From Rhodococcus sp. B50 (GTDB lineage: Bacteria; Actinomycetota; Actinomycetes; Mycobacteriales; Mycobacteriaceae), in assembly GCF_013602415.1 (NCBI RefSeq), contig NZ_WPAG02000002.1, positions 372,001-436,000 on the forward strand: DNA of 64,000 nt. Reading direction: 5' to 3'. Below, piece by piece: positions 19,857-20,039 of the stretch. A program made the translations under genes and the position numbers. Positions within the stretch are counted from its first letter, which is position 1. The number at the start of each line of letters is the position of its first letter. Under the pieces are notes generated by a model. That model made no database searches. It was given only the letters and a program-made list of their open reading frames with translations, and was not told the origin of the DNA.

Positions 19857-19886
19857 TTGACTGTCTGGACACCATGCGCCTACCGT
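19857..19886 (+). promoter_or_regulatory. Promoter of the ilvBNC leader
   Basis: A TTGACT -35 (19857-19862), 18-bp spacer and TACCGT -10 (19881-19886). The predicted start falls at about 19893, right at the GTG of the leader peptide (19894), so the leader peptide would be read from a leaderless transcript. Confidence 0.65.
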
Positions 19887-19893
19887 CGAGCGC

Positions 19894-19941
19894 GTGAATC
19901 AGAATGGGTTGCTCGTAATCGGCCGGCGCGTCGTCGCCTGA
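19894..19941 (+). CDS. ilvB leader peptide MNQNGLLVIGRRVVA
   Basis: A 15-codon frame (GTG 19894 to TGA 19939) encoding MNQNGLLVIGRRVVA. Six of 15 residues are the end products of the pathway it precedes: Leu6, Leu7, Val8, Ile9, Val13 and Val14. It lies 7 nt behind a promoter and 30 bp before a hairpin with a T-run. Its codons 11-14 form one arm of a 9-bp hairpin (19925-19933 with 19964-19972). This is the classical layout of a branched-chain amino acid attenuator: ribosomes stalled at Leu/Val/Ile codons keep the terminator from forming. It is too short for ordinary gene callers. Confidence 0.85.
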   Translation: MNQNGLLVIGRRVVA

Positions 19942-19973
19942 GCCGCATTCTGCAACTCGCCCACGACGCGCCA

Positions 19974-20007
19974 CCCTCGTACAGCAGACTGCTGACGAGG
20001 GTTTTTT
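19974..20007 (+). terminator. ilvBNC attenuator terminator
   Basis: CCCTCGT (19974-19980) pairs with ACGAGGG (19995-20001), stacked on an inner CAGCA/TGCTG stem, followed by six T (20002-20007). It lies 33 nt before ilvB. It is one of few hairpins in the window with a true T-run, as expected for a conditional intrinsic terminator. Confidence 0.85.
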
Positions 20008-20039
20008 GTTGCCCGGAGCCAGAATCAGAGGAACTCGCA

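What the first reader, a model, noticed from the sequence alone, without database searches (positions are those of the whole stretch)
19857..20039. Leader-peptide attenuator of ilvBNC with a leaderless MNQNGLLVIGRRVVA frame
Seen: TTGACT-N18-TACCGT-N7-GTG, then a 15-codon frame with two Leu, three Val and one Ile, a 9-bp hairpin overlapping its Val codons (19925-19933/19964-19972), then a two-part hairpin with six T just before ilvB. Known: branched-chain attenuators of this kind occur in enteric bacteria and were predicted in actinobacteria. Inference: low charged tRNA-Leu/Val/Ile stalls the ribosome and prevents termination. Unusual is that the leader would be initiated directly at the mRNA 5' end, without a ribosome site, so translation efficiency itself may be a regulatory input.
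Basis: partly seen in the sequence, partly recalled or inferred. Interest (0 to 1): 0.75.

Follow-up and report, generated by a model that had tools for sequence, protein, structure and literature searches.

The report
Leaderless leader-peptide attenuator of ilvBNC
Upstream of the genes that make leucine, isoleucine and valine lies a 15-codon reading frame followed by sequences predicted to fold into hairpins, kept in most sampled members of its bacterial family, and it would likely let a ribosome starved of these amino acids switch the genes on; experiments in related bacteria support the same kind of switch, so this is a new example of something known.

Summary
TTGACT-N18-TACCGT-N7-GTG, the MNQNGLLVIGRRVVA frame, the hairpin (10 bp) and the terminator with six T are there. 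All 17 genus loci with upstream DNA keep them (-35 spacing 17 in two). In 147 of 155 family loci a BCAA-rich frame starts 6-8 nt after TAnnnT; other ATG/GTG codons there do so in 6 of 2024 cases. The core codons CTC GTA are nearly fixed (GTA 145 of 145, although 2.9% of Val codons here).

It is most likely a ribosome-mediated BCAA attenuator, and not an unusual one: leaderless ilvB leader peptides are reported for Corynebacterium glutamicum, C. diphtheriae and Streptomyces lividans, and reporter work supports BCAA attenuation of ilvB1 in M. tuberculosis (2026).

One detail is less ordinary. The hairpin taken as antiterminator shares no base with the terminator but abuts it: gap 0 in 117 of 147 leaders, -1 to +1 in 135. 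Equilibrium folding predicts the window's terminator at every ribosome position tested. In 15 of 18 analysed Corynebacterium-like loci the two overlap. How the hairpin acts here is inferred (kinetic or steric). New member of a known kind; modest interest.

The parts
19857..19862 (+). -35 box TTGACT
   Evidence: Sequence; TTGAC 17-18 nt before the -10 in 142 of 147 family leaders
19881..19886 (+). -10 box TACCGT (TAnnnT)
   Evidence: TAnnnT 6-8 nt before a BCAA frame in 147 of 155 family loci
19894..19941 (+). leader-peptide frame, GTG start at predicted +1, MNQNGLLVIGRRVVA
   Evidence: 17 of 17 genus loci, three peptide variants
19912..19920 (+). predicted sensing codons Leu7 CTC, Val8 GTA, Ile9 ATC
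   Evidence: CTCGTA letters invariant in 79 aligned leaders; GTA in 145 of 145 leaders with an LV core while 2.9% of Val codons in the window
19925..19934 (+). left arm of hairpin H2 (predicted antiterminator)
   Evidence: two-sided changes at 4 of its 10 pairs
19963..19972 (+). right arm of hairpin H2, ending next to the terminator
   Evidence: gap to terminator 0 in 117 of 147 leaders
19906..19912 (+). left arm of alternative rod hairpin H1 (outer helix; partner 19952-19958; inner helices 19920-19923/19942-19945 and 19925-19928/19935-19938)
   Evidence: Standard pairs in 76.2% of cells against 32-43% when slid; minor in the window's own ensemble (0.01)
19952..19958 (+). right arm of outer helix of H1
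19973..20007 (+). intrinsic terminator: stem-loop 19973-20002, U-tract 20002-20007
20027..20032 (+). Shine-Dalgarno-like AGAGGA of ilvB
   Evidence: Sequence
20040..21980 (+). ilvB (acetolactate synthase large subunit)
   Evidence: Pfam TPP_enzyme N, M, C
21977..22480 (+). ilvN (acetolactate synthase small subunit)
   Evidence: Pfam ALS_ss_C, ACT_AHAS_ss

Best explanation
The region is most likely a transcription attenuator of ilvBNC in which a leader peptide, likely translated from a GTG at the very 5' end of the mRNA, is predicted to sense charged tRNA for leucine, valine and isoleucine. Inferred cycle: with amino acids plentiful, the ribosome runs to the stop codon at 19939 and masks the left arm of hairpin H2; the terminator at 19973-20007 forms and transcription ends near 20007. 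With Leu, Val or Ile short, the ribosome stalls at codons 6-9 and H2 (19925-19934/19963-19972) forms directly against the terminator. H2 then probably hinders closure of the terminator base while it is being made, by crowding it and, for stalls at the Leu codons, possibly by a 2-bp extension into its first bases; polymerase reads through into ilvB. Shown here: promoter-to-start geometry, codons, complementarity of H2 and terminator, and their conservation. Inferred: start site, translation, stalling, direction of control, and how H2 acts.
For: Conserved leaderless geometry with a chance control. CTC GTA core nearly fixed, with the rarest Val codon of the window. H2 plus terminator: 93.8% of cells paired against 33-50% when slid, 7 of 22 pairs with two-sided changes. 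In the window H2 is on with the ribosome at Leu6, Leu7 or Val8 (0.63-1.00) and off at Val13, Val14 or stop. Homologues: in C. glutamicum Val-to-Ala changes lose valine-dependent expression and terminator mutations raise it; in M. tuberculosis LVVI-to-AAAA gives low, inhibitor-independent reporter expression, and a ~120-nt terminated RNA is seen; ribosome-protected uORF at ilvB in M. abscessus.
Against: No RNA data for this organism. Terminator probability is 0.98 in all 22 combinations of ribosome position and edge tested, and its basal pairs average 0.92-0.93 over 120 unique family leaders whatever the state, so equilibrium folding predicts no switch. At Ile9 H2 is 0.90, 0.63 or 0.02 depending on the assumed edge. 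The 2-bp extension exists only for no ribosome, Leu6 (edges +11, +13) and Leu7 (+11); it is absent at Val8 and Ile9 at every edge, for which reason I lowered this confidence from 0.88. In S. coelicolor, changing candidate codons had no effect (cited in PMC1262725). One measure (further pair types) is reached by 129 of 500 shuffles.
Confidence: 0.85

Rival explanations
1. H2 is only a pause or timing hairpin, or neutral; control comes from ribosome position relative to polymerase, and H2 plays no antiterminator role.
For: H2 and the terminator share no bases in the window and both are in the minimum-energy fold of 23 of 23 chosen representatives with a ribosome at the core Leu codon.
Against: H2 is supported by paired changes and lies against the terminator in several families; in C. 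glutamicum the equivalent hairpin is assigned the antiterminator role.
Confidence: 0.2
2. A riboswitch or protein-binding RNA rather than ribosome sensing.
For: High primary-sequence conservation in non-coding parts; ppGpp was once suspected for the Corynebacterium motif.
Against: The frame is kept while residues change, and extra codons come as whole triplets; no Rfam match; the Corynebacterium motif did not respond to ppGpp in probing.
Confidence: 0.05
3. The leader is translated from an internal or upstream start with a ribosome site, not leaderless.
For: The generic promoter scan did not find this promoter; 25 of 147 family leaders have a second in-frame ATG at codon 2, so their start is ambiguous (not the window).
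Against: 147 of 155 family loci have a BCAA frame 6-8 nt after TAnnnT, against 6 of 2024 control starts; TSS at the leader start reported in C. diphtheriae.
Confidence: 0.05
4. Constitutive terminator that only sets ilvB level; the peptide frame is incidental.
For: Terminator predicted in all ribosome states.
Against: Leu-Val codons with rare GTA in 145 of 145 leaders having an LV core.
Confidence: 0.05

Closest known systems
ilvBNC attenuator of Corynebacterium glutamicum / ilvB-II motif (PMC11857589, PMC10272879)
   Same: 15-codon BCAA leader peptide starting at or one nucleotide from the mRNA end; H1, H2 and terminator in the same order; same operon
   Different: There H2 and terminator share a boundary GCC, and 15 of 18 analysed Corynebacterium-like loci overlap by 3 nt or more; in the window they abut with no shared base
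ilvB1NC attenuator of Mycobacterium tuberculosis (PMC13236596)
   Same: Leader frame with an LVVI core, ~120-nt terminated RNA, ilvB downstream
   Different: The published model calls the two folds mutually exclusive; in the window they are compatible. I did not fold the M. tuberculosis leader itself
Predicted ilvB leader peptides of Actinobacteria (Seliverstov 2005, PMC1262725) and S. lividans IlvL (PMC8079986)
   Same: BCAA frame followed by a terminator; in 14 Streptomycetales loci TTGACA-N18-xAxxxT-N7-ATG before MRTRILV
   Different: The 2005 paper left the mode of regulation open because other attenuator parts were missing; the Streptomyces -10 is GAGGGT-like

Membership tests
BCAA leader-peptide (ribosome-mediated) transcription attenuator | short frame rich in codons of the regulated amino acids | tested here: met
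   6 of 14 residues after the start are L/V/I; Leu-Val core in 145 of 147 family leaders, which were picked for at least three I/L/V
BCAA leader-peptide (ribosome-mediated) transcription attenuator | intrinsic terminator between frame and first gene | tested here: met
   19973-20007 by folding and paired changes; the generic scan missed it
BCAA leader-peptide (ribosome-mediated) transcription attenuator | antiterminator mutually exclusive with the terminator, chosen by ribosome position | tested here: inconclusive
   H2 depends on ribosome position but does not displace the terminator in equilibrium folds; a 2-bp extension overlaps it only for Leu stalls with a near ribosome edge
BCAA leader-peptide (ribosome-mediated) transcription attenuator | read-through on BCAA limitation | not testable with these tools
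   needs RNA or reporter data
Leaderless leader peptide | start codon at the transcript 5' end | tested here: inconclusive
   geometry met, conserved and controlled; the 5' end itself is not mapped
Corynebacterium-type ilvBNC attenuator with terminator/antiterminator overlap | boundary bases shared by contiguous H2 and terminator stems | tested here: not met
   window gap is 0, no shared base in the core stems

The most novel reading that the evidence does not exclude
Outside Corynebacterium, actinobacterial ilvB attenuators use an abutting antiterminator: a hairpin that ends on the base where the terminator begins and blocks it by crowding its base inside RNA polymerase, not by stealing its strands. 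That would be a form of antitermination whose key parameter is a zero-nucleotide gap.
Probability: 0.25. Interest if true: 0.6.

Novelty: new member of a known kind. Interest (0 to 1): 0.32.

Why it matters
It extends a documented switch to this Rhodococcus-like genus and shows that promoter spacing, a start at the predicted +1, Leu-Val codons and the hairpin junction occur together in most sampled leaders of the family. If the zero-gap junction is functional, it could supply the attenuator part that the 2005 survey of Actinobacteria did not find, and it can be tested by inserting bases at one position.

Tried and rejected
Rejected on my own side: (a) I first read the Streptomyces leader as Shine-Dalgarno-led because no TAnnnT stood before it (noted so in the notebook). 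One search shows TTGACA-N18-GAGGGT/GATGGT/GAAGGT-N7-ATG in 14 of 15 loci (the 15th, L059, was not located by my pattern), and PMC8079986 states it is leaderless, so I dropped that reading. (b) A classical antiterminator between H2's right arm and the terminator's left arm: by eye no more than 4 bp. (c) H1 as a duplex between the early frame and the loop of H2, against shuffles: mean z -0.39 over genus means, below -1 in 4 of 29 genera, so weak; the 5' half as a whole folds better than shuffles (mean z -1.64, below -1 in 22 of 29), and column counts favour H1 on most measures, but cells with two-sided change are no higher than in the version slid by -1 (51 against 52) and further pair types are reached by 174 of 500 shuffles. 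(d) Equilibrium folding as proof of a missing switch: it also predicts the terminator in most evaluated Corynebacterium-like leaders (4 of 16 lose 0.3 or more of the terminator base between stop and Leu stall; 2 more were set aside for weak terminators), although mutations in C. glutamicum support a switch, so it cannot decide. (e) In-frame TGA in ilvB matches of one genus: two of ten genomes checked; it is the normal end passed by the alignment. (f) Two searches for a described precedent of abutting hairpins gave no direct one in their listings (6 papers; 15 of 53 shown); titles and abstract starts only. (g) Start choice: prefers spacing near 7; without that preference picked an ATG 9-10 nt after the box in 16 of these loci. 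25 of 147 have a second in-frame ATG at codon 2.

Full report
WHAT IS THERE. From 19857: TTGACT, 18 nt, TACCGT, 7 nt, GTG at 19894, a 15-codon frame (MNQNGLLVIGRRVVA), hairpin H2 (19925-19934/19963-19972, 10 bp), terminator (19973-20002) and six T (20002-20007), then AGAGGA and the GTG of ilvB at 20040. Pfam confirms ilvB, ilvN, a divergent bPH_6 gene upstream and ilvD beyond it; ilvC was not tested. The 121-nt stretch 19894-20014 folds at -51.7 kcal/mol against -39.6 +/- 3.7 for 200 shuffles, z -3.27. Rfam has no match up to E = 1 in 18000-22000. A generic promoter/terminator scan finds neither element.

CONSERVATION IN THE GENUS. All 18 genomes searched carry ilvB; 17 have upstream DNA, the window's own included. 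All 17 have TTGACT, TACCGT 7 nt before GTG, both H2 arms, the terminator's left arm and six T; the -35 spacing is 18 in 15 and 17 in two (L090, L091). Three peptides occur: MNQNG- (14), MNQNE- (2), MNKNG- (1). The nearest named locus is Rhodococcus zopfii (91% in IlvB).

CONSERVATION IN THE FAMILY. All 151 family genomes searched have ilvB; its match list was cut, and three genomes (G019, G122, G154, all of genus g3) were not listed and not examined. I examined 155 upstream regions: 17 of the genus and 138 others; second ilvB copies were left out. My filter (BCAA frame, TAnnnT at 4-10 nt, T-run after the frame) gave 148; one (L233) is spurious by eye and was dropped, leaving 147 of 155 in 29 genera. 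Spacing from -10 to start is 7 nt in 113, 8 in 18, 6 in 16; starts are GTG 125 and ATG 22. These spacings lean to 7, because prefers it, without that preference, picked an ATG 9-10 nt away in 16 of these loci, and 25 of 147 have a second in-frame ATG at codon 2. The other eight are seven of genus g3 and one, L142, of g22. Three of those seven (L235, L237, L238) show leaderless BCAA frames by eye that my T-run filter missed (sequences). In the 147 regions, other ATG/GTG codons have TAnnnT at 6-8 nt in 6 of 2024 cases, and TTGAC stands 17-18 nt before the -10 in 142 of 147. The leaders were chosen partly by TAnnnT, so 147 of 155 counts loci that hold such a frame.

CODONS. In 145 of 147 leaders there is a Leu-Val core; Leu is CTC in 141 and CTA in 4, Val is GTA in 145 of 145, and the next residue is Ile 85, Leu 36, Val 22, Ser 1, Pro 1. 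In 36 ORFs of the window picked as coding-like, GTA is 2.9% of 1607 Val codons and CTC 50.8% of 1592 Leu codons. The last two residues vary (VA 64, NA 19, AA 14, GA 11, QR 8 and others). The sensing codons are therefore most likely 7-9, upstream of H2, not the Val codons inside it.

STRUCTURE. On 79 leaders (up to 4 per genus, 9 from the window's genus, genera g5 and g8 left out) H2 plus terminator form standard pairs in 93.8% of cells, against 33-50% for slid versions, with two-sided changes at 7 of 22 pairs; shuffles reach that pair count in 5 of 500, the covariation score in 0 of 500, and the number of further pair types in 129 of 500. A third, rod-like hairpin H1, within the frame and the loop, pairs in 76.2% against 32-43% slid, with weaker support on other measures. 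The three match the three-hairpin layout of C. glutamicum (PMC11857589). In the window itself H1 is minor (0.01) and H2 dominant (0.98) without a ribosome.

THE JUNCTION. With a ribosome at the core Leu codon, H2 ends next to the terminator: gap 0 in 117 of 147, -1 to +1 in 135 of 147, -3 to -12 in the other 12, while the distance from stop codon to H2's right arm ranges over 8-47 nt. In 37 loci of other families that I picked from the 80 because a leader was visible, 31 have a gap of -1 to +2, with different junction letters, such as GCGCGCT|CCCCTCG in Streptomycetales; the other six range from -2 to -14, one of them (L015) on a wrong frame. These counts are not independent of ancestry. Of 30 Corynebacterium-like loci, 18 gave a result: 15 overlap by 3 or more, and three have gaps of 7-12 with weakly called terminators; ten gave no leader by that filter and two were skipped.

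DOES FOLDING GIVE A SWITCH? Not at equilibrium. In the window the terminator has probability 0.98 with the ribosome absent, at codons 6, 7, 8, 9, 13, 14 or at stop, with three assumed ribosome edges. Over 120 unique family leaders the basal pairs average 0.92 (Leu), 0.92 (Val) and 0.93 (stop), below 0.5 in 3, 4 and 2. H2 is 1.00 at Leu6 and Leu7, 0.63-1.00 at Val8, 0.02-0.90 at Ile9, and 0 from Val13 on. Before the terminator's right arm is made, a ribosome far enough upstream lets H2 extend by two G-C pairs (19921-19922 with two of 19974-19976; combined probability about 0.93), spanning 3-4 bases of the terminator. This happens only without a ribosome, at Leu6 (edges +11, +13) and at Leu7 (+11), never at Val8 or Ile9, so it cannot by itself explain a response to valine or isoleucine. 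H2 is thus a kinetic or steric antiterminator, or not one. I favour the first because homologues respond to BCAA with the same parts, but this step is inferred.

WHAT IS KNOWN. Candidate ilvB leader peptides in Corynebacterium, Mycobacterium and Streptomyces were predicted in 2005, with the mode of regulation called unclear (PMC1262725, parts 1-2 of 3 read). C. glutamicum: TSS one nucleotide from the leader start, Val-to-Ala loses valine-dependent expression, start codon change cuts expression by 80%, terminator mutations raise it (PMC11857589, parts 1-4 of 6 read; the 2000 paper itself not seen, only its title). Corynebacterium ilvB-II motif in 103 sequences (PMC10272879, parts 1-3 of 4 read). 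C. diphtheriae ilvB leader leaderless by TSS (PMC5784534, passages). S. lividans IlvL leaderless (PMC8079986, passages). M. tuberculosis ilvB1NC attenuation with LVVI codons and a ~120-nt RNA (PMC13236596, passages). Ribosome-protected uORF upstream of ilvB in M. abscessus (PMC4974804, passages) and a small ORF there in M. tuberculosis (PMC11133741, passages). PMC4633059 does not name ilvB. I found no paper on Rhodococcus ilvB attenuation in the listings (15 of 21 shown; 10 of 21 shown); the library holds open-licence papers only, and of the Rhodococcus-mentioning hits I opened PMC3388012, PMC4974804 and PMC11133741 in passages.

VERDICT. Most likely a BCAA attenuator with a leaderless leader peptide, well conserved; a new member of a known kind. 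The zero-gap hairpin junction is the part worth a test.

Noticed in passing
L142 (G038, genus g22): A relative whose ilvB leader lacks the TAnnnT-start frame but by eye keeps an H2-like hairpin and terminator with changed letters on both arms (GGCCCGTC/GACGGGC): a natural case for separating RNA structure from leader translation.
   Followed up: partly
window 19253-19855 (-): Divergent bPH_6 (PH domain) gene upstream; the ORF as listed has its start at 19855, one base short of the ilvB -35 box (19857), so either the region is tightly shared or the true start lies further in.
   Followed up: no
L100 (G011:C8) and G039:C25: Second, diverged ilvB copies (79 and 78% identical); L100 shows no leader or T-run in the roughly 110 bases printed before its likely GTG. 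G039's copy was not looked at.
   Followed up: partly
L231, L232, L234: Three Corynebacterium-like loci where neither my filter nor a look at the sequence showed a BCAA leader.
   Followed up: partly
window 20008-20032: GTTGCCCGGAGCCAGAATCAGAGGA after the U-tract is nearly invariant in the genus and repeats GAATCAGA from the start of the leader frame; purpose unknown.
   Followed up: no
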